Source: Tetracentron sinense
Taxonomy: Eukaryota; Streptophyta; Magnoliopsida; Trochodendrales; Trochodendraceae
NCBI GenBank assembly: GCA_015143295.1
Contig: CM026571.1
Span: 3,987,501-4,051,500, forward strand
Length of the DNA: 64,000 nucleotides
Direction of reading: 5' to 3'
Numbering within the stretch: position 1 is the stretch's first letter; each line of letters begins with the position of its first letter. A program made the translations under genes and the position numbers. Below are positions 2,191 to 42,377 of this stretch, piece after piece. The notes beneath the pieces are model-generated. The model saw only the letters and a list, made by a program, of their open reading frames with translations. It was not told the origin of the DNA and ran no database searches.

Positions 2191-2791
2191 AATATAATAT
2201 TATAGAAAACAAGGGAGAAAATCACACTGCAAATAATTGTCTATGAATGCTATCTTTAACCAATGAGTCAGCAGACTCATTGGCATCTCTAAGCACGACC
2301 ATACTAAAAATCTCTAATCCTTCCCCCTTGAAAGGTCCAGTCATTCAAATTGGCTGACAGTCCAGGATCTTTAGAGGGGTCAATGGCCCAAGAAATAAAC
2401 CGAAAGGAGTCCCTTTTCACTTCAAGAGAGCCAGCAAATGTGATGAATGGTCTTCAAGCTTTTAAAATGACAATCCTTCCACTTTTAAGGAATCTTTTAC
2501 ACCCTTAGAACATGGGAAAACCTTATGAGTTCTCTGTCATCACTCGTGCAAACCAGGGATATCTTAGCATGCAGAGAACTACTGTGAATAATAGCATCCC
2601 AACTTGATTAGTAAGCTGATTAACCAAATACCCTTGAATTCTTTGCGACTAGCAATTCAATGGAACAAGTGGCAGTTTGGTGATTTACACGTGTAGAATA
2701 TATAAATAATTATTGATAAATGAGGAGTGCTTGGAATTTTTGTGCTTTTCCATGATTAAAACATCATATAAGTTTTAAAATGAGAGCTTAC

Positions 2792-4346
2792 CAGGCATGG
2801 GATGAATCCCGTTCTGTATGGGAGCCATTGGAACCTTTGGAGGTATCGGGTACATCAGATGGAACTGAAGCTCAAGTAAATAATTAAACAAGATGATCTG
2901 TTTCTTCAACTTTAGCCTTATGTAGTAGGCCCTGAAAAACTCAGCATTTTCTTCTTCCAATTTCTGCCATACTAAGTTAACGAAAAAGAAAGAAAGAGGA
3001 TTATCAGACCACAGTGCCGGCACTAAAAGGTTTTGGATGATGAATATAGTTCTTAGTACGCAACAAGATAAACTGGTTCCAAGGGTATACTTATCCCTGA
3101 TTCTCTGTTTGTGAACAAGAGAGAAGGAATACAATAAGCTATCTTTCAGTAAGAAAACAGTGAGCAGTATGAATTTCAATAGACCTTGACAACGGAAACG
3201 ATATCATATTTATCAACATATACTATCCATACATTAGTCAGTTGTAAGTATATGACCTTCTTAGCATCACATGTAAATAGTGATAATTGGCTAGAGTCAA
3301 AGATCTTTGGTCTGCGATCCATGTGCATTTAGTTCCCAAGAAAGAGGTGGCAGATGATGGCATTCCCAATGTCGGCAGTCCACATGAGCACCATTCTTGC
3401 TAGACCAGTTATTACATTATAATGACCCCATGTCATTACTCATACTCCTATCTCCAAGGACCAAGATAGAGCACTCTTGGATTGCACCAGTTCAAAAACC
3501 AAAACAGTTACCCAACTCTCACTTTCCATCCAGTTTCCTACTTTATACAGTCAGAGACTCAGAAGTCATGGCAGACTGTCCGGAAAAATGAGAAAGAGAG
3601 GCATTTGTTGATCTGACAATAAAATAATCTGATCAACATGATTATGGTGCAACATGCAATACAAGAGGTGACCTTTACCGACTAGATGACATGGGTTGAT
3701 ATTTGATAAGCATTTGCACCACGTATATGCTAACAAACTCACGCCCAGGGCCCTTAAATTGTAATAGGACCATAGCTACTCCTTTCTATCATTCCTTCAA
3801 TTAACTCATTGAATTTTTTTTAATTTAAATAACAATGAAGTTTAATAGGCAACGTAAATGTTCATGGTAAGCAACCAACAGAACTGAGTTACATACTACC
3901 AAATCTGTTACGTCACAGAAACTAACAGGAAGAGTTCTAAGTTGCCTACCCAAAGTTGTAAACCCAGGCTCTATTCTTGCACGATTCAAGAGAGTTTTTA
4001 CCACCTCATCTCTATTCATATACAACTGTAGACACCGTTCTATCAAATTCTGGACCTACAGCAACCATTTAAAATAGGAGATATCAGAGCTGGAACAGTT
4101 TAATTGAACTCCCTTTCAAAAATCAAAGTCAAGCATAAAATTATCAATATATATGAAAGAGATTGACTTACAAGTTCAATATCTTCACGTGAAACTTTCG
4201 TACTATCATTGCTTGAAATGGATATTGAACCTGAGTCTGCCACAGGAGCATCAGTAGTGTTATTCTGTTGGTCACTGTATGACTCAAGTGAAACTTGTTT
4301 TGAGGACTGTATTTCTGGTGTGCTCTGTGAATCCTGTGGTCGTTCT
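2792..4346 (-). CDS. Plant-specific TIGR01589-domain protein, partial (3 internal exons)
   Basis: Three exons on the minus strand join in frame at GT-AG sites: 4346..4172 (175 nt), 4055..3950 (106 nt) and 2971..2792 (180 nt). The first encodes a Ser/Gln-rich, disordered-looking segment ending SREDIEL. The second and third encode the conserved domain, beginning VQNLIERCLQLYMNRDEVV and continuing through VWQKLEEENAEFFRAYYIRL to a proline-rich stretch ending NGIHPMP. This matches the TIGR01589 / 'plant protein 1589 of unknown function' family as I remember it. Short Arabidopsis paralogues are reported to influence greening and photosynthetic gene expression, but the role of these longer members is not known to me. 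The last exon ends one base into a codon at a GTAAGC donor, so downstream exons (family: NNLPMGYP...) must exist. They are not in 1-2791, and the gene probably runs off the left edge. The initiating exon was not found; the 4346 exon begins in the third position of a codon. Confidence 0.87.
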
Positions 4347-7817: not shown

Positions 7818-8700
7818 TAATAGCAAATATAGATGCAGAAGAACAGAAAATGGACAGCATACAAAGAATTGGGAGAGCATGTTATAGCCTGTTAAATAAA
7901 TAAAAATAGTAATTTTTATAAATAAAAAAAATTCTTAATTTAGCATATTCAAGCTTTTGAGAACTCCAACAACAGTAATAACCCTGAAACACCCACGCAA
8001 CAGTTAGAATTCACTAATTCCACGCATTCTACGTGCTCCTAACATCAGAAACAACCTTGCATGTTCGAAGGAGATTGTTGAAATTTCCTAGAACTAATAT
8101 AAAAAAGGAAAGGAAAATATCTAACTAAAACTCCTTCAAAGGGTCTCGAACATCTCAGATGATTGGAAATTAAAGTAGAAAAACATGCAAAACAAGATCT
8201 GGCGAACATTTACCATCACCAAAGTTCTGAAATCTCCATGACACCGAAAAAAACACCTCCTGTCGACGAATTTATAAACCCTAACTCTTCAGAGCTTACA
8301 ATTAGATAAACACGGAATAGAAATCAAGCTCTTAAATATGAACTCCACGAATTCAGGGAAAAAAAAAGAAGAGGAAAGGCAAATGGAAAAACAATGAGAA
8401 TGCATGAAATTGTAAGTTCAGCTACTATTCTATATTTCTATACTTTCAGAGCTATTTCTAACTGAATCTGACGATATTTGCACCAAAATAAACCGCAGAA
8501 CACGAGGAGCCCGGATTTACAGTAATGGAAGCTCAGATTAGTAGCGAAATTTCTGGATCAGTGAGTGAAGTTCTTTCGAGATCTTGGAGGCTTTCTGAGC
8601 AGAAACTGCTGCAAGCTTTTCTGTAACGTCATTGAAAGCCAAATGGAAGAGACGCTGAATAGGAAGAAAAAAATCTCACCAAACATCTCCATTACTTTGC

Positions 8701-8707
8701 ATTTATA
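8701..8707 (-). promoter_or_regulatory. Possible TATA box of the TIGR01589-domain gene
   Basis: On the minus strand the sequence AAAATATAAATGCAAAG contains TATAAAT. About 30-40 bp downstream begins a pyrimidine-rich tract (TTTTTTTCTTCC) that would suit a plant transcription start. The link to the gene is inferred only from position and strand. The distance to the first identified coding exon is 4.35 kb. Confidence 0.3.
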
Positions 8708-8924
8708 TTTTAAAAAAAAAAAAAAAAAACTAAAAACTAATAAAGAAACATGTAATTAATCTGTATTTCTTTCTGATCTTAGAATGGAGTAAAAGAATGT
8801 AAATTTACCATTTACTTCGACGGCTTTATCGGCTTACCTACGGATTCAGCTCCACTCGGCTCAGATTTTGCCGTGTCGTGTTTTTTTTTTTTTTTCTTTT
8901 TGTTTGTTTTTGGGGTTAACTACT

Positions 8925-9389
8925 AGCTAAACTAAACACACATACATCGTACCTAAGGTTACGACAAAAGAGCCATTAGGATTCAAGAATTCTCCATTTT
9001 TTTTTGTTGAAGAGGTAATTTAAACACAAACATCATACCAAAGGTAACCGCTAGGGTGCCATAAGAGTACACCTACACAACCACCCCTAAATGGCTTAAC
9101 TTAAGAAGGGTTTGTGGTCTCTTATACACCCCTATGAAGGCTAGTACCCAACCGAGGTGAGACTATAATTATGAGAGTAAAACTCAATCGTTAAGACAAA
9201 TTCATTTTTTGGTTGAAAAGGTAATCTAAACACACAAACGTCAAACTTAAGATAACCATTAGGTTTCCATAAGGATAAATCCACATAACCACTCCAAAAA
9301 GGCCCGACTTAAGGAAGGCTTGTGGTCCCTTATACATCCTTCCTTTAGTCAGACCCTTTTGGAGTGATTAAGTGAGTTTATCCTTATGG
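8925..9389. repeat. Three diverged copies of one repeat, the last with a hairpin
   Basis: Related segments begin near 8925, 9010 and 9215. Each follows the pattern AGGTAATYTAAACACA...ATCATACC...GGTAACC...TTAGG. The second and third also share the GGCTTGTGGTC...TTATACA portion. In the third copy the arm at 9269-9311 (starting ATAAGGATAAATCCAC) is repeated inverted at 9341-9387, giving a foldback with an AAGGAAGG/CCTTCCTT inner stem. No coding potential is seen. Confidence 0.65.
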
Positions 9390-9404
9390 CGCATTGAATT
9401 TAAT

Positions 9405-9598
9405 TAATTACAAGAATTTCTATCATATTCTAATTGATATGAGAAAGTAATTGTATGTGCTCTCAGTCTATGGGCCATCAGGTCAAGAACCAACGGTATC
9501 GTTGGTTTTCAATTGGATGGCCCACAAGCCGAGGGTGCATCTGTTGTATACAATCACTTTCCATTGGTACGAATGGTTAATTCTGATTTCCAGTTCTT
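9405..9598. mobile_element. Foldback (hairpin) element
   Basis: The two halves are imperfect inverted copies around a centre near 9495. The left arm contains AGTAATTGTATGTGCTC and ATGGGCCATC. The right arm contains the complements of AGTGATTGTATACAACAG and GTGGGCCATC. Flanking the centre is AACCAACGGTATCGTTGGTT, a near-perfect palindrome. The outer limits are approximate and no target duplication was identified. A hAT element is inserted just to its right. Confidence 0.65.
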
Positions 9599-9606
9599 AT
9601 TAAGAA

Positions 9607-9837
9607 CAGGGCCGGCCCATTCATTAAGCCATCAAAGCCTTTGCTTTAGCCCCATTAAGAAAAATAAACAATATTAAAAAGGCCCCATTTTGAATATTAA
9701 AAAAAAAAAAGGCCCATTTAGAATATTAAAAATGCCCCATTTATAGTTAATTTTTTTTAATAGTATTAAAAAAAAAAAAAAAAACCCCCCATTTAAAATT
9801 TTTGCTTTAAGCCTCCAAATGGTTTGGACCAGCCCTG
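9607..9837. mobile_element. Non-autonomous hAT element, 231 bp
   Basis: It starts CAGGGCCGGCCCA and ends TGGACCAGCCCTG, which are inverted repeats of the common plant hAT type CAGGGCCGGCC. It is flanked by a perfect 8-bp target duplication, ATTAAGAA, at 9599-9606 and 9838-9845. The interior is A-rich and non-coding. Confidence 0.93.
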
Positions 9838-9859
9838 ATTAAGAATTATCCACTGGAGA

Positions 9860-10663
9860 TAGGTCTACACTCAAGTCAAGCTTTTATTTGAGTTCAAACC
9901 AAGATAAGCACAAGTCAAACCCTATTTGAATCGGCTTTGCTTGAAACTCAACTCGTTTAAGGCTCAATTGGCTCAACATATTTTTCTTATATCTACACAA
10001 TAATTTTTTCTAATGTTATTTATATTAATACAAAATAATAATTTTAACTCTATTTATCACATATTGTTGTAATAACTGAATTTAAAATAAATAAATTTAA
10101 GAAATAATAACAAAAAATTAAGAAGTTAAAAAGTAGAAACTCTAATCTAATAACTCTCTTGCCTCTACTCTTTGGATTGGAGGACTAACCCAAAGTCTTA
10201 TTTTCATATTGAGGAGTGCTATCCCTAGTCACATTTACTCCAGAAGTTTCCATAGAAGCAAGGTAAGGCATATCACATGGACATGTTTGATATTTTAACA
10301 CATTAAAAAAATAAAAACCAAAAGATTTTTGACATTTGTAGCCACCAAGTTACGTCTGTGAAAGATTTGTGACTGGACTAGCAAAATTCTTTCGTGTATG
10401 ATTGTATTAATTTATTGTAGTTTTTTGTATTATAATTTATTAATAAACACATTTATTAAAATTACATAAAAAAATAAATAAAATAATTTCGTGAATTAAG
10501 CTTAACCCAACCCAAGCTCAACTCGACTTGAATATAGTTCGAGCTCAAGCTTGACTAAGCTTATTCAAGCCAAGCTCAAGCCTAAACATTCGAGCTCGAA
10601 TCAAGCTCAAGCCAAGCTCAAACTTAGCCAAGTTTGACTCAGCTTGGCTCTAATACACCCCTA
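9860..10663. mobile_element. hAT-type non-autonomous element, copy 1 of a dispersed family
   Basis: The ends are TAGGTCTACACTCAAGTCAA on the left and, inward from the right, TAGGGGTGTATTAGAGC. The subterminal parts are dense in AAGCTTGG, GAGCTCGA and CAAGCTCAAG words, and the middle is very A+T-rich. The same structure occurs in inverted orientation at 14410..15108, where an exact 8-bp duplication defines the family. No matching duplication is left around this copy. It has no coding capacity. Confidence 0.7.
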
Positions 10664-19067: not shown

Positions 19068-19072
19068 GGCGG

Positions 19073-19776
19073 TGTGTGTGAATTTTCTTGAATGTTCACG
19101 TGTCAGCTACTCCTTGGATTATGGTTTACTGGTAGAAGAAAGAAGGTGAAAGGTGTACACCCTGTAATACACTCCGATGCCAAAGTTAGAATAGGTAAAA
19201 GATGATGTACAGTAAAAGAGGTTGAAACACTAGCAATATTCGTGAAAATTGCCGATCCTTAGGCATTTAAACTCTTGGGGTATTTATAGGTTTTAATCTG
19301 TATGCCCATGCATGCCCATAGATGGCCATGGATGACCATGCCACTTGCTTTATGATCATTACCAAATATGTCAGACATATCTTGAGTCTTACGTGTCACA
19401 CGTGTAAGCCTTCTATTAGTAAGGTCGGTCTGGAGTCGAAAACATGTTGAGATGACTAGCATTAAATGCTATGACAATGTTTTTCACCTAATAATAAAGT
19501 AGAATGATCGCCTCCTTATAATTTCGTCCTGTAAGTCAATCTCATTGTGGACTAAAGCTCGGGTCCGTTGTGTATGTGAATACAAATTGAATAATCGTTG
19601 TCCAAACAGACGACGGCTACATTCGTCTTCTAGATAACGAATCTGTTGTGATTCGTTGTCTTGAAAAGAACGGGTTCGTTCTCAGTTTGAATACGGGTTA
19701 CCCTTCCGTTGTCATAACAACGAAGATTAGCTCGTCGTCACAACACTTAATCATTTTACGAATTTTATCCATTACA
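19073..19776 (-). repeat. 3' LTR of the minus-strand retrotransposon
   Basis: It is aligned throughout with 25195-25925, for example TTGCCGATCCTTAGGCA, GGGTATTTATAGG and ACGAAGATTAG. It lacks the 37-bp internal duplication of the other LTR. Several substitutions show that insertion is not very recent. On the minus strand the polypurine tract is at about 19777-19787. Confidence 0.9.
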
Positions 19777-20206
19777 ATTTGCCCCTTGATGATGCCTTGA
19801 ACGTAATTTAAAGTATCATCAATAACTCGGCACACGAAGTAGAGAATACATGTCACCTTATAGACACAAAAGCGTTGCATGAGCTGTACGTGAATGTGGA
19901 TCGTCATGTCAGCTGTGTCACATGCGTGCCAAACTGTCACGCCTCAGAAATGCTTAGCAGGCTATCATCATTGCTTTTTACGGAGCTCAAGGTGCACTAA
20001 TCCCTCCGACGGTTACTCTGTGACAAAAGACGATCATGTCCACGGTCTTTCTTACGTGTACGACGAGGATGAGGGTTAACTCCGTCCTACACGAATTTCT
20101 GTCTGACATGCCGATTTGAATCACGCGAATGACCTTCTTGACTCTACTCTTGCATACATGTACGACAACGATGAAGACCATTCTCGTCTTAAAATTTTGA
20201 ATTGCC

Positions 20207-20214
20207 TATAAATA
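20207..20214 (+). promoter_or_regulatory. TATA box of the antisense gene in the retrotransposon
   Basis: TATAAATA lies on the plus strand, with CTTCATCTTCTTCAC about 25-30 bp downstream, a good initiator context, then a long pyrimidine-rich leader to the ATG at 20477. It points opposite to gag and the LTR promoter. Confidence 0.6.
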
Positions 20215-20476
20215 TGGCGTACAGCTCTTCATCTTCTTCACTTGCTTTCGAACCTTACTGTTACTTTGCCAAAATCTCTCATTGCTGAAGACTTCAAGTT
20301 CTCTGCTCTCTTAGCCCTCCGACCACAGTACAGAACTCGATAAGATTTCACTTTTTGCTTATTTTACTCTCCATTCTCTGTTTCTCTTCTTCTCTATCTC
20401 TGTTGTTCTCTCTTGTTTGTCATTTTCATCTCTGTCTTTCATTTCATTTGTCCATCACTTTCCTTATCTGCCAAAC

Positions 20477-22704
20477 ATGTATGCTGAGGAGGTTAGAGTT
20501 GCTGGTGTTGAAGAAACCAACTGCTCTGGTAGTGCACCTTATGGTGCCTACGTGGCCTCCTATCCCCAAACCAAAAAATACCAGAAACACGCCTTAGACC
20601 ATTACAGATCACTCTTTCAGATTCCTTCCCATGTCCAAATCCACTTCAAGAGGGACGACTTCATCCTTGACCGCCATTCAACTCATACCATTGTCTATCC
20701 GGCCCAACTCGAGGCTGGTCTCCGTCTTCCACTGGATCCCATAGTGGATTCAGTTCTTTCCGCTCTCCAACTTGCCCCGGGTCAAATGCACCCCAACTTC
20801 TACAAATATATGTCCTTGGTGACTAAGTTCATCAAGGACGGAATCCACATAGAAACTAGGCACCTCTTCTACTTCCATCACGTTGTTAAGTGCTGAGGTA
20901 GTGGCAAGGAGGACGGTCCCTACTACAGTTGGAGTCAATGTGCTAGGGTCTCCGACTTCATCTCGAGCTTGGTTGACCTGGACCAGAATTAGAAGGAGTC
21001 ATCCTTCATTGTCTCTGGTGCCTGGAGATCGGAATCCTCCCATCCTGTCCCCAACGTCTTCCAAAAAGGTTCGTTGTACTTAGCCCGTTGTCCGTCTTTC
21101 TTTCTTTCATTCATTGTCTATCTCCCGTTATCATTGGCACTTACTTCTTTTATGCAGAACTGTCAAAGACTCACTTTAAAGACATCTCCCGAGACAAGGA
21201 GCGCCACCTGAAGAATATTGTCAAGGAGAGAGGAGGGGCCTACATCACTTAGAGGCCGAGGAAAGAAACTGAGGTTGAACAACAAGACCAGGGTAGTGAC
21301 AGTGTAGCAAAGGCGGCCCCTTCCATTGATCAAGTCAGGTCGTCTACTTCCCCTCCTACTGCTACTGCTGCTGAAGAAGAAGAAGAAGAAGAAGAGATGG
21401 TTGGAGAAGCTCCCCTCCCCCCACTGGTCAAGGCAGTCACCCATGTTGCCTCCGTCCTCGAAGACGCATACATCCGCCCCACCCTTAACAACGGAAGTAG
21501 CTGCCCCTTCCGGTCACCAATCAAAAAAGAGGGCAGCAACCTTGGCCGAAATTATGGCCAAGAAGAAGAGGAAGGAGGAGGAGCATGACAGAAGATGCCA
21601 AGAACGGGGCAACGCGGTCATGGCTCCAACTCTAGCTCGGCTAGAAGTCCAAGAGCCAGCTACGCTGGCTGAACCGTTGGTTGCTAGTCAACCTTTGGTC
21701 AATGTAGCTGCTCCTTCTGCTGCTCTGCCACAGGAGGTGGAGACAACGGAGGATCCCGTTGTCTGAGCACCCATCTTCAAGGTTAGGCCCCACTCACTGA
21801 CAATGGCGGATACAACAATAAATAACGGCTTAATGGCCACAACTGTGAGCCGGGGGGCGAGGCTCCCTGCCGACGTGGCTTCAACAAAGAAGCTGAACAT
21901 GACGGGGCTGAACAGCGTCGACACCATGGCTCTCGCAACGGTATATTCTACTCTGTCTTGCATATTTCACTTCACAATTCATACTTTCTTGTACTGAATT
22001 CGTCTTCTTTCTTACCAGCTAAACAACATGTTTGCGGAGCTTTTTGAACGCTATGACAACGTTCATCAGGCGCTTGAGTACTGGAAGCAGCAAGCCATCA
22101 CTGTGGCAAAAAAGGCAACAGGGGAGAAGACGGCTCTTACTCTCAAGCTGCAAAGAACTCAGTCTTAATTGGAGAAGGCCAAATCCAAAGCCGATATATA
22201 TCGGGCGCGTCCTGTGAAGCTGCTCAGAAATCAGCTGAGGACGAGAAGAAGGCATCGGAAGCGGCCGCTGCAGCCAACCTCTTAGTTAAGGAGCTGGAAG
22301 AGTTGTCACAGACTCTTGTGAAGCAACTCGAAGAGGCGGAGCTCGCGAAGTAAGCCTAGAAGAACGAACTCTGAGATTACTATCAAAAGGAGGTCGATCG
22401 GATGGTGCTTGAAGACCGGGCGGAGACGGAGAAAGAACTTGTTAAGGAACTCTGAGAGGTAAGACGGTTGATAGAAAACCCCCAAAAGTCCAAGGACAAG
22501 ACTACTCACTCCGAGGCTCCTAGTCTAGAAGTCATCATGCTCGGTGACGAGGCTGAAGTACAAGGAGTCGAAAGTCCTCCGCTTCCCGAAGATTCGGATC
22601 CTTCTCTGCCTGAGCTTCCCGCTGACCCACCTATCTCCGTTGAGGACGATGCTGCCATTCAACCCGAGTTTGCTCCTGAACTCAACGCCAAACTCGTTGC
22701 CTAG
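20477..22704 (+). pseudogene. Antisense spliced gene, Transposase_28 (PF04195)-like, decayed
   Basis: Exon 1 (20477-21068) starts MYAEEVRVAG and holds a domain with YPAQLEAGLRLPLDPIVDSV and PGQMHPNFYKYM, the signature I know from plant 'putative gypsy-type transposon' proteins. Intron 1 (21069-21157) has GT-AG ends, and splicing joins G|AA in frame to ELSKTHFKDISRDKERHLKN. Exon 2 continues through an Ala/Pro-rich, acidic then basic (AKKKRKEEEHDRR) region. A second intron (21941-22018) leads to a coiled-coil exon (NNMFAELFERYDNVHQALEY) and an acidic, proline-rich tail ending at 22704. Stops at 20894, about 20990 and in exons 2 and 3, plus frameshifts, show decay. Function is unknown. It looks like a host-type gene carried inside the element, opposite to gag. 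Confidence 0.78.
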
Positions 22705-22709
22705 CTGTC

Positions 22710-23420
22710 TTTTCTTTTCTTTTTCTTCCGATGTACTTTTTCTTTTTTCTTCTTATGAAATGTATTCCCCTTTGTTCAATGAAAGTCACTTTTTTACATA
22801 CTCTCTTGTTACTCGTACTGATGTAAATCACTTAAAAAAACTTACAAGACATAGAACACGTAACACGTACATGCAACATAAAACCAAAGAATGAATTAAT
22901 CATCTTTCTAAAATTTTTACAAGACATAGAGCACGTGAAAGTGCATGTAGCACGGTAACACTTAATAAGAACACTTGAAAGATAATAAGATGCAAGAACA
23001 CTAAGTTGCAGAGCACGGTTACTTTTATGAGAATGATTGTAAATGACTATGGATGCATCGTAGTGTAAAACATCATCAATGTAATTAGACAAATGATATC
23101 TCATACGTTGAACTTTAGGTGACTCGTGGTGGGACACCATGCTCAGATGACATTTCATTAGTATAAACTACTGGTTTGCTCATATGACAATTCATTGAAT
23201 GAGCCACATGTGTCTCGTGGTGAGTACCATGTTCAAATGAAAACTCATTTGGTATTTCATTCATGACATTTTACTAAACACTTGATCATTTCGCTCATCT
23301 TGACATTAAATAATCTCATGTAGAACTTCAAGAATGGAATATATAAATGAATTCGTTGTGTAACTCATACATATTTATTGAAAAAATTGTATCAAATTCA
23401 TAATGTTCCAAGACATTTGG
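22710..23420. other. Retrotransposon interior without coding sequence
   Basis: This interval is where pol would be expected, downstream of gag on the minus strand. I see no protease, RT or integrase motif. It contains diverged short direct repeats, such as TTACAAGACATAGARCACGT near 22842 and 22917, and TCGTGGTGRG near 23123 and 23215. Confidence 0.6.
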
Positions 23421-23426
23421 ATTACA

Positions 23427-24588
23427 TTACCTTGGTCCTGCTATGACTGAGGTGTCATCTTCGAATCTCTCGAACTTAGCAGCACAAACTAGCATGTCAT
23501 CCAGCTTGGTGGGGTAGTCAAGAGCAAGAGATTCATATATTTTGGAGTTTTTTGGCACTGCATTCTTGAATGCGGCTATACTGCTATTGTCTTCGACCTT
23601 ATCGATGTTAGAGACCTCATTACTAAACCGTTGAACGAAGTCCCTCAGAGATTCCGTTGGCTCCATCTTTAGAGTGAAGAGGGAATCTGCACCTGCTCTC
23701 TTCTTCTTATTCACGATATATTGATCAATAAAAGCTGACCTGAGTTCGGCTATGCTCTTGATTGAACCAGCAAGCAAGTTACGAAACCACCTTGCTATAG
23801 CTTCTGTCAAACTATTCAAGAAAGCGTTGCAGAAAAGATTATCATTAGGATTGCGAAGAGTCATAGCGTACTTGAAGTTGAACAGGTGGTCAACAGGGTC
23901 TGTCCTTCCATCGAACATGATAAAGTTTGACGTTATGAACTTCGAGGGAGTGTATACTGGTTGATCTTATCTGAGAAGGGAGAGGTTCCAACGTCCTCCT
24001 TTGCTTTCTGCGCAAATTGATCGAAAGAGCTCCCACCTGTTCCCTTAACATGGGCACTGATCATGGCCTCTGCATCTTTGAGAGTCATCTACGTCCTTTG
24101 ATCCTCATAATGCGTTTGAGCATTCGGCTCTTGAGCATTTTGGACCCGTGGCTCCTCACGGGGTACTGGGGATCTCTTCGGTCACTACGAACCCGTGCTT
24201 CTCGCAGCTCAGCGCGGACATAAGGATCTTGTTGTTCAGCACGAACGTAATCCAGGTCCTGTGGTTTAGCACGGGCTTGATCCCGTTGTCCAACATGAGC
24301 TTGCTGGACAGGTGGAGGATGGGGTCAGACAGCTTCAATGGAAGGAGGAATGAGCACGAATCTGTTGTCAAGATTCTCACGCAACGGCGAAGATGCTGGC
24401 CATGTTGCTGCTCTTCTTAGGGGAGAAGATGTGAGGAGGAGCTATCGTCGAACAGTAGGAATGGCAATGGGCGGGGCGGGGGCGGTTTTCTACCACCCCG
24501 GCGCCGCCCCGCCCCCGACCGGGGCATACATATGGTGAAACCGCCCCCGCCCCACTTATAAAATCCCCACCCCGGCCCCGCCCCACTT

Positions 24589-24656
<68 letters not shown>

Positions 24657-25133
24657 TTTAAATATATATAAAAGAAATTGCAGGCGGGGCAGGGCACCGG
24701 AGCGGGGTATACTAAAAGCACCCCCGAGTCGGGGCTTATTTTTTTATACCATCCCCGCCCCGCCCCCGATTTTTTTGAAAAAAAACCACCCCTATAGGGG
24801 CAGGGTGGGGCGGGGCCCCTATGGGGGCGGGTCATACTGCCATCTCTATCGAACAGGGCGCCTTCGGAGTGGCTCAGTATCTGATTCATACATATCATGC
24901 TCGAAAGCATCCAGCCTCTCTTGAAATGACTATTGTAGGCCGATCAAGCGGGTTAAAGTGGACTGTTGTTGTTATAGCAGCAACAAGATCTGGCTTGTTT
25001 GAGAAGCCTCTCCTACGAGATGCTCAGAAGATTGCCCAACTTCTGGCCTAGGAGTGTGCGATGAGGTTGGAACAGTAGGAGTGGTCTGAGGGGTTTGATC
25101 CTCAACCAAGGGTATGAGGGTTTGATCAACCAT
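23427..25133 (-). pseudogene. gag of the retrotransposon, interrupted
   Basis: The minus-strand ATG at 25133-25131 opens MVDQTLIPLVEDQTPQTTP, a plausible N-terminus just inside the 5' LTR. After stops and a 393-bp hAT insertion, the core gag region is open from 23918 to 23427. It reads MFDGRTDPVDHLFNFKYAM, then ARWFRNLLAGSIKSIAELRS and ESLRDFVQRFSNE. This is the Retrotrans_gag (PF03732) pattern, the capsid-like protein that packages element RNA. The zinc knuckle is not seen. The interruption makes this copy unable to express a full Gag. Confidence 0.85.
24456..24848. mobile_element. hAT-type element, G+C-rich with a (TA)n core, in gag
   Basis: It begins TAGGAATGGCAATGGGCGGG and ends ATACTGCCATCTCTA. 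A perfect 8-bp duplication, TCGAACAG, lies at 24448-24455 and 24849-24856. The arms are strikingly G+C-rich (CCGCCCC/GGGGCGG repeats), in contrast to everything around, while the centre carries a (TA)n run at about 24593-24653. Open frames inside are artefacts of these repeats. Confidence 0.88.
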
Positions 25134-25173
25134 GGTGAATAAAGAGAGTAAATGGAGGTTCGTTTAAGAAATT

Positions 25174-25192
25174 CTCACAGACGACGCCAATT
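25174..25192 (-). other. Primer-binding region of the retrotransposon
   Basis: Reading inward from the right LTR on the minus strand, the sequence is AATTGGCGTCGTCTGTGAG. This closely resembles the TTGGCGCCGTCTGTGGG that follows the 5' LTR in many plant Ty3/gypsy elements. It sets the element's polarity. Confidence 0.75.
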
Positions 25193-25194
25193 TT

Positions 25195-25925
25195 TGTGTG
25201 TAAATTTTCTTGAACGTCCACGCGTCAACTGCTCCTTGGATTCTGGTTTACTGGTAGAAGGAAGAAGGTGAAGTGTGTGCACCCTGTAATACACTATGAT
25301 GCCAAAGTTAGAATAGGTAGAAGATGATGTATAATAAAAGAGGTTGAAACAGTAGCAATATTCGTGAAAATTGCCGATCCTTAGGCACTGAAACTCTTGG
25401 GGTATTTATAGGTTTTAATTTGTATGCCCATGCATGCCCTTAAATGGTCATGGATGACCATGCCACTTGTTTTATGATCATTACCAAATATGTCAGACAT
25501 ATCTTAAGTCTTATGTGTCACACGTGTGAGCCTACTATTAGTAAGGTCGGTTTGGGGTCGAAAGCAGGTTGAGGTGACTAACATTAAATGCTAAAACAAT
25601 GTTTTTCACCTAACAACCGAGTAGAATGATTGCCTCCTGATAATTTCGTCCGGTAAGTCGGTCTTGTTGTGGACTGATAATTTCGTCCGGTAAGTCGGTC
25701 TTGTTGTGGACTAAAGCTCGGGTCCGTTGTGTATATGAATATGAATAGAATAACCATTGTCCAAACAAACAGCGGCTACATTCGTCTTCTAGATAACGAA
25801 CTTGTTGTCCTGAAGACAATGGATTTGTTCTCAGTTTGACTACGGGTTACCCATCCATTGTCATAACAACGAAGATTAGATCATCGTCAGAACACTTAAT
25901 CATTTTACAAATTTTATCCATTACA
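25195..25925 (-). repeat. 5' LTR of the minus-strand retrotransposon
   Basis: It mirrors the 3' LTR at 19073. A 37-bp unit starting TGATAATTTCGTCCGGTAAG is tandemly duplicated at 25638-25674 and 25675-25711, absent from the partner LTR. The two LTRs are identical at insertion, so this arose afterwards. Confidence 0.9.
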
Positions 25926-25930
25926 GGCAG

Positions 25931-26093
25931 ACCCATGGATTCCATTTCCAAACCTAATGCATCCACCTATTGTCCACCAATAGGTGGATGCACCCCCTCT
26001 TAAATGCTCACCACATTTGGTTAGCATTTAAGAGGGGGGGCATCCACTAATAGGTCGATGCCTTAAATTTGGAAATAGAATTTATGGGTACGT
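25931..26093. mobile_element. Foldback element abutting the retrotransposon
   Basis: The left arm ACCCATGGATTCCATTTCCA is matched by the right arm, read inward as TACCCATAAATTCTATTTCC. Inside is a second stem: AATGCATCCACCTATTG and ACCAATAGGTGGATGCACCC, then CTCTTAAATGCT pairing with AGCATTTAAGAG. No target duplication is clear. Confidence 0.65.
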
Positions 26094-41300: not shown

Positions 41301-42377
41301 TCTCCAGAGGGGATTGATATAGCGGATTTCTACACCGTTTTATAACCTCCTGGTGTTTTATAGATTTATTGTTCTGCATCTTGTTGCAACGAAATCCTAG
41401 ACTCATCTTCTTGTGACCCCATGTATTTGCTTATGTACTTTATTTTTCCTTCATTAATATGGTATGCCGATGTTTACCGATTAAAAAAATCTAATTAGTA
41501 TTTTTTTTAACTTTTTCATATACTGCACAACATTTTCCTGATTAATTTTTTACATGTTCTGAATTCTATCGATTTTTCCAAATTTTTCCGTAGTTAAAGA
41601 ACTCCCTAACTCTGACTAGCTGACTATATACCTAGTATCTACAAAAAGAAACAATTAAACAAAGAGCAGAAACAACTGGAATGAGTAAGATCAAACTTAA
41701 AGGATGGGAGTGAATACCATTTCCTGGAACCCTTAAACATGCAGTTAATTTGTTGTTCTCATCTGTGCACCTATTGGATGAATCGCATTCTTCACCATGA
41801 GAACTCTCTTTCCTCAACGGCTTTGAAGAGACTGAACCCCCTTCCTCACTTCCCTCTTTATGAACCACTTTGGACTCCGACCCTTCACTGGGCTTCACAT
41901 TTTTGTCTCCCCCCTTTACCCGTGATTCCATACTTGAACCATCCTTATCTGTTCCAACTTTAGGTGGTTCTTTTGAATGAAATTGCTTACCTGAATTGTC
42001 CTTGCCTGGATCGTTCTTGATTACCCCATGTGATTCTACATCTTGATCTTCATCCTTTTTCTCTTTGTCAACTTTCACAGAACCCAATGAATCTGATCCG
42101 CTCACTTTCGAATCCGATGGTATACTGTTTTTGTCATTTGAGGGTAGGGAACTTTTCGGATCTAATCCAGTGCTCAGGTTTGTTACTCCTACCTAAAAAC
42201 AAAATCTACAATAAATTAAAAAAAAACTAACCTTGATTTGCGGAATCATATCAATTTAATCTTAAACAAGAAAAAAGAATACTTGCTTTCACTCTTTACC
42301 TTTAATTCAGCTCCAGAGAAGTCAATGAAGAGTAGGGTAAGTGCAAAAATCACCAGAAAAACGCAATTTCTCTCCAT
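28624..42377 (-). CDS. DUF7356-type single-pass membrane protein, complete (4 exons, 383 aa)
   Basis: Exons on the minus strand are 42377..42300 (78 nt), 42192..41718 (475 nt), 38212..38085 (128 nt) and 29094..28624 (471 nt including TAG). All introns are GT-AG, the phases join exactly, and the total is 1152 nt. Residues 1-22 or so (MERNCVFLVIFALTLLFI...) form a signal peptide. Residues 27-160 are a charged Ser/Lys/Glu/Gly-rich spacer. Cysteines at 162, 168 and 178 open the conserved region (CLRVPGN, then ESPDLSLFIQNKGK and ISAPDFVQLE). A further Cys at 252 lies in AGNGGCNLDFRDLI. One membrane helix spans about 285-304, followed by an RFRRR stop-transfer and a cytoplasmic tail with WENSWGDNWDD and a basic end. 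It fits a plant family annotated as DUF7356/transmembrane protein, predicted type I topology, function unknown. Introns of 3.5 and 9.0 kb are stuffed with transposons. Confidence 0.9.
31436..32035. repeat. Old tandem duplication, about 310 bp x 2
   Basis: Two consecutive diverged copies start AGYAATTCAACTTGG (31441 and 31750). They share, in order, TTCTGYTGCATAT, GGTGTCT, GTTGATRTTCTGCATC, GCCATGAG and CCAGCTTTTACC. Identity is well below that of the duplications at 5208 and 47055. Confidence 0.7.
33742..36235 (-). mobile_element. Second LINE, minus strand, split by an insertion
   Basis: Read on the minus strand, the RT domain gives DPLSPFLFIMVNESLKPLVG, then SHLQFVDENLVFYGAS, then SLRINFSKSHIF and PNLEEFAICLGCKLGFLP (about 36130 to 35740). 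The catalytic FADD/YADD has become FVDE. Further on, the zf-RVT tail gives RALLDQVTWFIWKEHNRRIF near 34080-34020 and ends in a short poly(A) at 33750-33742. Stops and frameshifts abound, so it is dead. It sits in intron 3 of the DUF7356-type gene, in the same orientation as the gene. Confidence 0.85.
34288..35446. mobile_element. Insertion in LINE 2 with GCCTAGGCGACC-rich ends
   Basis: The left end TTTTAGTCATATTTGTCGAG and the right end, read inward as GGCTAAAATCATAGTTGTTA, are similar. Each is followed by TGAGGCGACAG/TGAGGTGCCTCAGG-type sequence. The word GGTCGCCTAGGCGACC near 35380 is a perfect palindrome. The flanks TCTATTTGAAAGA (34275-34287) and TCTACTTTGAAGA (35447-35459) look like a decayed target duplication. 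The superfamily is not clear; the interior carries (GA)n and A+T-rich DNA, no gene. Confidence 0.55.
36240..38080. other. Intronic sequence, no element assigned
   Basis: Open frames such as 36979..37209 (plus) and 37679..37479 (minus) resemble nothing I know. GTGCATTGCACGTGCAA at 36274 is a self-complementary word. Confidence 0.4.
39637..39908. mobile_element. Tourist-like (Harbinger) MITE, 272 bp
   Basis: It begins GGGCCTGTTTGGTTAAACTT and its right end reads inward GGGTTGCGTTTGGATAATCT. These match the terminal repeats of the Harbinger element at 16179, which may represent its transposase source family. The flanks TAA and AAA are consistent with a mutated 3-bp duplication. Confidence 0.75.
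40490..40930. mobile_element. Long foldback MITE
   Basis: Arms of about 60 bp are inverted. The left has CAACAATTAAGAGATCGAAT then GATTGAACTCGGGGAGAGTT. The right reads inward CACGAATACATCGTGAATTA, then TTGAGATCGAATCACAACC and GATTGAACTTGGGAGAGTTC. Inside are inverted TTAGGATTAATC/AACCTAAGG motifs and ACACGTGT words. Half copies recur at 55340 and 63600. Confidence 0.7.

What the first reader, a model, noticed from the sequence alone, without database searches (positions are those of the whole stretch)
20207..22704. Spliced, promoter-bearing gene antisense to gag in a pol-less LTR retrotransposon
The element carries no pol but keeps a gene on the opposite strand with its own TATA box, a long leader, at least two short GT-AG introns and a Transposase_28-like domain followed by coiled coil and acidic tail. 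Splicing intron 1 restores frame (K|ELSKTHF), which is hard to explain by chance. Introns in an antisense gene can survive retrotransposition because the genomic RNA is the other strand. Antisense genes are known in some Tat-group elements; the role of this one is not known to me.
Basis: partly seen in the sequence, partly recalled or inferred. Interest (0 to 1): 0.72.

Follow-up and report, generated by a model that had tools for sequence, protein, structure and literature searches.

The report
Spliced antisense gene in plant retrotransposon
A decayed plant jumping gene that lost its copying enzyme carries, on its opposite strand, the remains of a three-exon gene whose relatives in the same genome show that its protein and its introns were kept by natural selection; backward genes of this kind are already known in this lineage.

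Summary
The window has an old Ty3/gypsy element (19073-25925, minus strand; LTRs 89.8% identical) with gag, no pol, and a plus-strand gene with TATA box, long leader, two GT-AG introns and a weak Transposase_28 match. This copy is a pseudogene. In 21 rows (20 relatives, window) intron 1 keeps GT in 20 and AG in 18; in 15 alignable rows intron 2 keeps GT in 15 and AG in 14; a second subfamily shares both. Median exon dN/dS is 0.20-0.43 in the gene frame (gag 0.21). For that second subfamily, pattern searches found 211 exon-intron boundaries and 0 spliced junctions, so the other strand is the template. A sister copy has RT, two RNase H and integrase in Tat (Ogre/Retand) order; antisense Transposase_28 ORFs are published for Retand. 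Added here: the conserved three-exon structure, and a small pol-deleted subfamily (at least 8 copies; junction fits a 5-nt microhomology) in which most copies examined keep the gene. Splicing is inferred from sequence, not seen in RNA. Most likely role: a nuclear, probably DNA-binding, regulator of the element.

The parts
19068..19072 (.). Left flank GGCGG, probable 5-bp target duplication (right flank GGCAG, one change)
19073..19776 (-). 3' LTR (left in the window), 704 nt
19777..19787 (-). Purine-rich tract next to the 3' LTR
   Evidence: read from sequence
20207..20214 (+). TATA box of the antisense gene; TATAAA or TATAAG at the homologous place in 19 of 21 subfamily A rows
20477..21068 (+). 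Exon 1 coding part, ATG at 20477, holds the Transposase_28 match; stops at 20894 and 20990 in this copy
20690..20854 (+). PF04195 Transposase_28 match, profile positions 1-55 of 69, below the curated cut-off
21069..21157 (+). Intron 1, 89 nt, phase 1
21158..21940 (+). Exon 2: linker with acidic run and basic AKKKRK cluster; stop at 21250 and frame changes in this copy
21941..22018 (+). Intron 2, 78 nt, phase 0
22019..22704 (+). Exon 3; in relative L035 it encodes a coiled-coil-like stretch and an acidic, proline-rich tail; disrupted in this copy
22705..23429 (.). Spacer between the antisense gene and the pol-deletion junction
23430..23434 (-). pol-deletion junction, CCTTG on + (CAAGG on the sense strand); 7 sites with this junction in the genome
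23430..25133 (-). gag, ATG at 25133, capsid domain PF03732 in 23430-23966; disrupted in this copy
24456..24848 (.). 393-bp hAT-like insert inside gag, 8-bp duplication TCGAACAG
25172..25189 (-). Primer-binding-site-like TGGCGTCGTCTGTGAGAA, 5 nt inside the 5' LTR
   Evidence: tRNA type not determined
25195..25925 (-). 5' LTR (right in the window), 731 nt
25926..25930 (.). Right flank GGCAG

Best explanation
This is a dead, pol-deleted (non-autonomous) copy of a Tat-group Ty3/gypsy retrotransposon, most likely of the Retand lineage, that carries the lineage's antisense Transposase_28 gene in a three-exon form. In living ancestors RNA polymerase II started at the gene's own TATA box near the 3' LTR, the antisense pre-mRNA lost two short introns, and a protein of about 740 residues was made: an N-terminal Transposase_28-like domain, a linker with a basic nuclear-signal-like cluster, a coiled coil and an acidic tail. 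The introns persist because reverse transcription copies only the LTR-driven sense RNA, in which they are not introns. Shown here: anatomy, conservation of promoter, ATG and splice sites, protein-level selection, pol-bearing sisters, pol deletion at one junction. Inferred: transcription, splicing, nuclear location, and the role. I think the most likely role is a nuclear DNA- or chromatin-binding regulator that helps its own element be transcribed, integrate or escape silencing.
For: Transposase_28 match in the window and five relatives at the same place, all below cut-off. Splice sites: intron 1 GT 20 of 21 and AG 18 of 21 rows (column counts for the 20 rows without L011); intron 2 GT 15 of 15 and AG 14 of 15 alignable rows; same introns in subfamily B. 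Median dN/dS 0.20 in exon 1 over 208 pairs of 21 rows against 1.11 and 1.32 in the other forward frames; B exons 0.25, 0.42, 0.32; gag of eight rows 0.21. Codon position 3 differs at 0.32 and intron 1 at 0.28, against 0.16 and 0.12 at positions 1 and 2. Two of 8 testable B copies read 742 codons only with both introns removed, 271 with none removed. 211 exon-intron boundaries against 0 spliced junctions for subfamily B. Pol with RT, RNase H, second RNase H and integrase in sister L020, in the Ogre/Retand order. At least 8 pol-less copies. In six pol-less pairs with dated LTRs, dN is 0.099-0.124 and the post-insertion share 0.074-0.116, while dS is 0.311-0.644.
Against: No RNA data. The Pfam match never reaches its cut-off. 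Of 21 A rows 15 have a stop in exon 1; only 2 of 8 testable B copies are open throughout, and no fully open subfamily A copy was shown. Subfamily B intron 2 is 36-65 nt, short for a plant intron (recalled). One frame of B intron 1 is itself free of stops with dN/dS 0.32 (short stretch). The complementary-strand frame that shares third positions also gives low ratios, 0.29 and 0.31, though with 63 and 39 stops per 1000 codons, and some other forward frames of exon 3 give 0.63. Pairs in these medians are not independent. Pol-less copies could have re-acquired the gene by recombination with pol-bearing ones.
Confidence: 0.72

Rival explanations
1. The antisense transcript works mainly as RNA: it pairs with genomic RNA and feeds small-RNA silencing or copy-number control, as antisense RNAs do for Ty1; the reading frame is incidental.
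For: Antisense transcripts of LTR elements can reduce retrotransposition or trigger silencing (passages of PMC12786077; parts 1 and 2 of 3 of PMC7264820). The antisense gene lies wholly within the sense genomic RNA.
Against: Selection on the amino-acid sequence, lowest in the gene frame in every forward comparison of exons (0.20-0.43), and conserved splice sites are not explained by an RNA-only role.
Confidence: 0.12
2. A captured host gene that happened to insert in reverse and is decaying; selection seen is that of the host gene before capture.
For: It has introns, a promoter and reverse orientation, as a captured genomic gene would (anatomy).
Against: It sits at the same place in pol-bearing and pol-less elements and has relatives in a subfamily 60-64% alike with the same introns, and the class is lineage-wide in Retand (PMC11963269). 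That paper reports no similarity to Transposase_28 outside transposable elements.
Confidence: 0.05
3. The apparent introns are T-rich spacers between separate antisense ORFs, as surveys treat them, and are not spliced.
For: Two surveys count antisense ORFs singly (methods of PMC11963269, and PMC6317226). Other GT-AG pairs can open long frames. Subfamily B intron 2 is very short.
Against: GT and AG bases are kept while the interior of intron 1 diverges nearly as fast as third codon positions and both introns vary in length among A copies; the intron phases join the lowest-dN/dS frames of B exons 1, 2 and 3.
Confidence: 0.1
4. The pol-less form arose by splicing pol out of the sense RNA followed by reverse transcription, not by deletion.
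For: The deleted block starts with GTGAAG and ends near AAG before GTAATG in the sisters.
Against: Splicing from the parents seen would leave CCAAGGGTAATG or CCAAAGGTAATG; the copies have CCAAGGTAATG, which a switch within the shared CAAGG gives exactly.
Confidence: 0.15

Closest known systems
Retand-lineage antisense Transposase_28 (TRP28) ORFs, Vicient 2025 (PMC11963269; parts 1-3 of 5 read, plus a word search)
   Same: Same position (between pol and 3' LTR), same orientation, same domain; reported in 97% of clusters.
   Different: The paper predicts single ORFs and its main text has no occurrence of 'intron'; its search starts from RT, so RT-less elements like this one could not be found by it.
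Maize Grande gene23 (Gomez-Orte et al. 2013; seen only as cited in PMC7264820 and PMC11963269)
   Same: Antisense gene between pol and 3' LTR, transcribed from its own promoter, nuclear protein.
   Different: Whether gene23 has introns is not known to me; the original was not available.
Silene Retand ORF4 (Kejnovsky et al. 2006; seen only as cited in PMC7264820)
   Same: Antisense ORF with a transposase 28 domain, weakly expressed.
   Different: No introns mentioned in what I read.
TR-GAG non-autonomous LTR retrotransposons (named in a passage of PMC6696364; definition recalled)
   Same: LTRs plus gag, no pol, dependent on partners.
   Different: This one also has an antisense gene, kept under selection in its subfamily.
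Ogre sense-strand intron (passages of PMC6317226)
   Same: Tat relative whose RNA is spliced.
   Different: Ogre's intron is on the genomic sense strand between gag-protease and RT; here the introns are on the opposite strand.

Membership tests
Tat/Retand lineage (Ty3/gypsy) | Second RNase H between RNase H and integrase (Ogre/Retand arrangement) | tested here: met
   Pol-bearing sister L020: RVT_1, RT_RNaseH, RVT_3, rve in that order on the sense strand; the window copy has no pol. Criterion from PMC6317226
Tat/Retand lineage (Ty3/gypsy) | RT sequence clusters with Retand | not tested
   No reference RT set was at hand
Tat/Retand lineage (Ty3/gypsy) | Antisense Transposase_28 ORF between pol and 3' LTR | tested here: met
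   Position met; domain matched at E 4.9e-5 but below Pfam cut-off
Tat/Retand lineage (Ty3/gypsy) | Target duplication of about 5 bp | tested here: met
   Pol-less sister L019 has ATAAA on both sides; window GGCGG/GGCAG 4 of 5 equal; L024 CTATT/CTATC 4 of 5; L010 and L011 no match
Transposase_28 (PF04195) | Score at or above the curated cut-off | tested here: not met
   23.9 against 26.2 bits in the window; 18.2-24.6 in five relatives. Filed as a divergent relative, not a confirmed member
TR-GAG non-autonomous elements | LTRs and gag, no protease, RT or integrase | tested here: met
   Window scans; pol-less copies L010, L011, L019, L024
TR-GAG non-autonomous elements | Multiplied after losing pol | tested here: inconclusive
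   7 sites with the same junction plus L019, with LTR pairs of different divergence; repeated deletion at the same microhomology is not excluded and the trees do not resolve it
Spliceosomal introns | Spliced transcripts | not testable with these tools
   No RNA data

The most novel reading that the evidence does not exclude
The antisense protein is needed in cis: elements that dropped pol and borrow it from partners still kept the antisense gene (and gag) under purifying selection, so its product, unlike reverse transcriptase and integrase, must act on or near the copy that encodes it, for instance as a locus-bound transcription or anti-silencing factor made from a spliced, nuclear-processed mRNA.
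Probability: 0.27. Interest if true: 0.72.

Novelty: new variant of a known kind. Interest (0 to 1): 0.52.

Why it matters
Antisense genes in plant LTR retrotransposons have no known function (PMC7264820, PMC11963269), and the two surveys whose methods I read score them as separate unspliced ORFs. If the gene is really spliced, its protein is about 740 residues with Transposase_28-like, basic, coiled-coil and acidic parts in one chain, and separately reported antisense ORFs with SMC-type annotations could in some cases be its downstream exons (inference). The pol-less subfamily offers a natural test of which proteins must be supplied in cis.

Tried and rejected
Looked for relatives in viral contigs with the antisense exon 1 and with gag and in prokaryote contigs with exon 1: none confirmed. 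Frame scoring inside the window, trained on exon 1, followed the gene model through exon 1 and after intron 1 but disagreed with the dN/dS frame near the end of exon 2, so it was not used. Frame restoration as proof of the intron was rejected. A leader intron was considered because a donor-like GTAAG is kept in the leader: by pattern and alignment in 14 of 21 A rows and in 9 of 9 aligned B rows. Of the 10 A rows with GGTAAG, 7 have no AG between it and the ATG and 3 do; among the 9 B rows, L031 and L036 have one by eye. No common acceptor was found, so it is left unexplained. Splicing of pol from sense RNA was considered for the pol-less form and fits worse than a 5-nt microhomology. L011's LTR pair (K2P 0.386) was not used for dating because its left LTR matches poorly; L010's date rests on 438 sites. 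Paper searches that could have shown introns in these genes. No title or abstract start in those listings speaks of them, and the passages or parts I opened of six papers (PMC7264820, PMC11963269, PMC6317226, PMC11728184, PMC6696364, PMC12786077) do not either; most subscription papers are not held.
Full report
WHAT IS THERE. The element runs from 19073 to 25925 on the minus strand. Its LTRs are 704 and 731 nt, 89.8% identical over 694 aligned sites (53 transitions, 18 transversions, K2P 0.112). With plant rates I recall (1.3e-8 or 6.5e-9 per site per year) that is about 4 or 9 million years. Flanks GGCGG and GGCAG fit a 5-bp duplication with one later change. Inside are a primer-binding-site-like TGGCGTCGTCTGTGAG next to the right LTR, a purine tract next to the left LTR, gag with a clear capsid match (PF03732, E 2.4e-11), and no pol. 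RT, RNase H, second RNase H and integrase pieces from sister L020 find nothing in the 10 kb around the window's gene, while gag is found. Of 9 minus-strand open pieces of 80 residues or more, 8 were scanned with Pfam and only gag matched above cut-off; a YIDD at 23083 lies in a spacer that in sisters is outside pol. A 393-bp hAT-like insert with an 8-bp duplication sits in gag.

THE ANTISENSE GENE. On the plus strand, between gag and the 3' LTR, lie TATAAATA (20207), a pyrimidine-rich leader whose only ATG is 20477, exon 1 with a Transposase_28 match (E 4.9e-5, 23.9 bits, below the cut-off 26.2), intron 1 (21069-21157), exon 2, intron 2 (21941-22018) and exon 3 to 22704. Introns hold 47% and 46% T against 18-26% in the exons. 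Of 737 GT-AG pairs of 65-160 nt in the gene, the 12 with the greatest T excess all overlap these two blocks, the exact pairs ranking 5 and 6; elsewhere in the window 28 of 16,694 plus-strand pairs, and on the whole minus strand 35 of 19,519, reach an excess of 0.25. In this copy the gene is dead: stops at 20894, 20990, 21250, 21764 and 22166 in the frames followed, and frame changes between them.

RELATIVES IN THE SAME GENOME. A six-frame search with exon 1 gave 150 matches, all that were scored of 2518 candidates, so the true number is not known. I took the 20 best after the window itself (subfamily A, 72-82% identical in this protein piece) as 10-kb stretches and 10 of the matches at 60-64% (subfamily B) as 3.5-kb stretches. 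Where the A copies are complete the layout is shared: LTR, leader, exon 1, exon 2, exon 3, spacer, then pol and gag, or gag at once; L011, L013, L014, L016 and L017 lack exon 3 in the stretch (L011 exon 2 as well), and L021 and L022 lack a matching LTR.

INTRONS. Over 21 subfamily A rows including the window, intron 1 keeps GT in 20 and AG in 18 (L015 lost the donor; L011, L018 and L026 the acceptor; column counts for the 20 rows without L011 are). Intron 2 could be aligned in 15 of 21 rows: GT in 15, AG in 14 (L027 lost it). The other six (L011, L013, L014, L016, L017, L022) lacked one side or carried an insertion. Subfamily B has the same introns at homologous places: intron 1 is 86 nt in nine of nine B copies other than L038; intron 2 is 36-65 nt in the eight where it was located. 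L038, the most divergent, has similar intron 1 and intron 2 sites that I read by eye only, and L036 has other sequence where intron 2 should be. TATAAA or TATAAG is kept at the homologous place in 19 of 21 A rows; L017 has TATAGA and L021 a replaced upstream region (the automatic pick for L009 was another TATA and the alignment was used). Nine of 10 B copies have TATAAATA or TATAAGTA.

SELECTION. In the gene frame, exon 1 of subfamily A gives a median dN/dS of 0.20 (208 pairs, 21 rows) against 1.11 and 1.32 in the other forward frames. The complementary-strand frame that shares third positions gives 0.29, with 63 stops per 1000 codons against 6.9 in the gene frame. The end of exon 2 (13 rows) and the start of exon 3 (16 rows) of A give 0.43 and 0.25, with 0.63-0.98 in the other frames. 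B exons 1, 2 and 3 give 0.25, 0.42 and 0.32, with 0.63-1.47 in the other forward frames. Gag of eight A rows gives 0.21. Against a clean picture, one frame of B intron 1 has no stop and a ratio of 0.32, on a very short stretch. Mean pairwise differences are 0.16, 0.12 and 0.32 at codon positions 1, 2 and 3 and 0.28 in intron 1 (20 rows). Pairs are not independent and these are simple counting estimates. Of 21 A rows, 6 have no stop in exon 1. Of 8 B copies where both introns could be located, two (L032, L035) read 742 codons when both are removed, 497 and 502 when only intron 1 is, and 271 when none is; the other six have one or more stops. Long frames can also be opened by other GT-AG pairs: 25 of 1296 and 35 of 1262 single-intron trials reach 490 codons, and 56 of 22,748 and 58 of 29,798 two-intron trials reach 740. 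So this alone proves little.

TEMPLATE STRAND. A 30-nt pattern over the exon 1-intron 1 boundary of subfamily B, up to 3 mismatches, occurs 211 times in the genome (reversed control 0). The matching pattern for a spliced exon 1-exon 2 junction occurs 0 times. The control for the intron 1-exon 2 side and the search for subfamily A did not complete, and copies differing by more than 3 bases would be missed.

LINEAGE AND POL. Sister L020 holds RT, RNase H, a second RNase H (RVT_3) and integrase in the order of Ogre/Retand elements (criterion from PMC6317226 passages). With the antisense Transposase_28-like gene this points to Retand. RT phylogeny was not run. By tblastn, 13 of 20 sisters have pol pieces, 4 have gag and no pol (L010, L011, L019, L024; L024 also has a 25%-identical integrase match of opposite strand outside the element), and 3 (L013, L014, L016) show neither. 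A protease-like DSGS lies between RT and gag in L020, L023 and L025, of 5 examined.

THE POL-LESS SUBFAMILY. The window, L010, L011 and L024 share one junction; L019 has lost 18 more bases there. A pattern over the junction finds 7 sites on 5 large contigs, control 0, against 96 sites for the pol-end side of pol-bearing copies. Three of the 7 were new (L039-L041): L039 and L041 match all three exons, L040 lacks exon 1. So of 8 pol-less copies, 7 have exon 1 and 7 have exons 2 and 3. L019 has a perfect 5-bp duplication, ATAAA; L024 matches in 4 of 5; L010 and L011 show none. Pol-bearing parents read CCAAGGGTGAAG at the gag side (L020, L021, L023; L012, L025 and L042 differ), and pol ends read TACAAGGTAATG in L022, L026 and L015 (allowing one change; others have AAAAGG or GAAGG). 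The pol-less junction CCAAGGTAATG is what a jump within a shared CAAGG gives; GT-AG splicing would leave one base more. In a tree of exon 1 the five pol-less copies are separated from five chosen pol-bearing ones, but 14 rows were left out of that count, 8 of them with pol. In a tree of the spacer with 11 pol-bearing rows the pol-less copies share a supported set with three pol-bearing rows and are not a clade by themselves. A single origin is therefore suggested by the junction, not shown by the trees. In the six dated pol-less pairs exon 1 dN is 0.099-0.124 and the sum of half LTR divergences 0.074-0.116; dN differs from it by -0.008 to +0.040, while dS is 0.311-0.644. Little amino-acid change is left for the time before insertion. 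Recombination with pol-bearing elements could mimic this.

PROTEIN AND FUNCTION. Exon 2 has a basic cluster followed by EHD in both subfamilies (for example AKKKRKEEEHDRR in the window, AKKARREAEHD in L034). Exon 3 of L035 has high heptad hydrophobicity over roughly its first 120 residues by a simple count, and an acidic, proline-rich end; no Pfam domain reaches a cut-off in L035 exons 2 and 3. Published work reports nuclear location for Grande GENE23 and a DNA-binding prediction for Transposase_28 (PMC7264820, PMC11963269). I infer a nuclear regulator. This step is inference.

NOVELTY. The gene class is published: 97% of Retand clusters (PMC11963269), 23% of Retand elements in an earlier survey with a 250-codon limit (PMC6317226). 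The main text of PMC11963269 has no occurrence of 'intron', and PMC7264820 asks for attention to antisense and spliced transcripts. My paper searches listed nothing whose title or abstract start reports introns in these genes, but most subscription papers, including the Grande and Retand originals, are not held. I rate it a new variant of a known kind.

Noticed in passing
24456-24848: 393-bp hAT-like non-autonomous insert in gag, GC-rich ends, TIR TAGRRATGGCA, 8-bp duplication TCGAACAG, with an internal (TA)n run.
   Followed up: partly
25931-26089: Long inverted repeat (41-nt arms, MITE-like) starting directly after the right target duplication, with a second inverted pair inside.
   Followed up: no
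Leader of A copies, about 100-155 nt before the ATG; B copies likewise (L029-L037): Donor-like GTAAG in the leader of 14 of 21 A rows and 9 of 9 aligned B rows, followed by a T-rich stretch with few AG up to the ATG; no common acceptor for a leader intron is evident.
   Followed up: partly
L029-L037, oriented position about 1108: Unspliced reading of exon 1 runs into the same TAG in 8 of 9 B copies (about 271 codons), so intron retention would give a product of nearly constant length.
   Followed up: no
L011: Pol-less element that also lost exons 2 and 3 of the antisense gene; its two LTRs are very unequal (K2P 0.386), perhaps a chimera.
   Followed up: no
L029-L037 intron 2: Intron 2 of subfamily B is largely poly-T of varying length, 36-65 nt in the eight copies where it was located.
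   Followed up: no
L013, oriented 8045-9871 (minus): A 609-residue open frame, not identified, in a copy that shows neither gag nor pol in the stretch.
   Followed up: no
2778-3203 (-) and 41635-42192 (-): Pieces of host genes with PF09713 (plant protein 1589) and PF24053 (DUF7356) matches.
   Followed up: no
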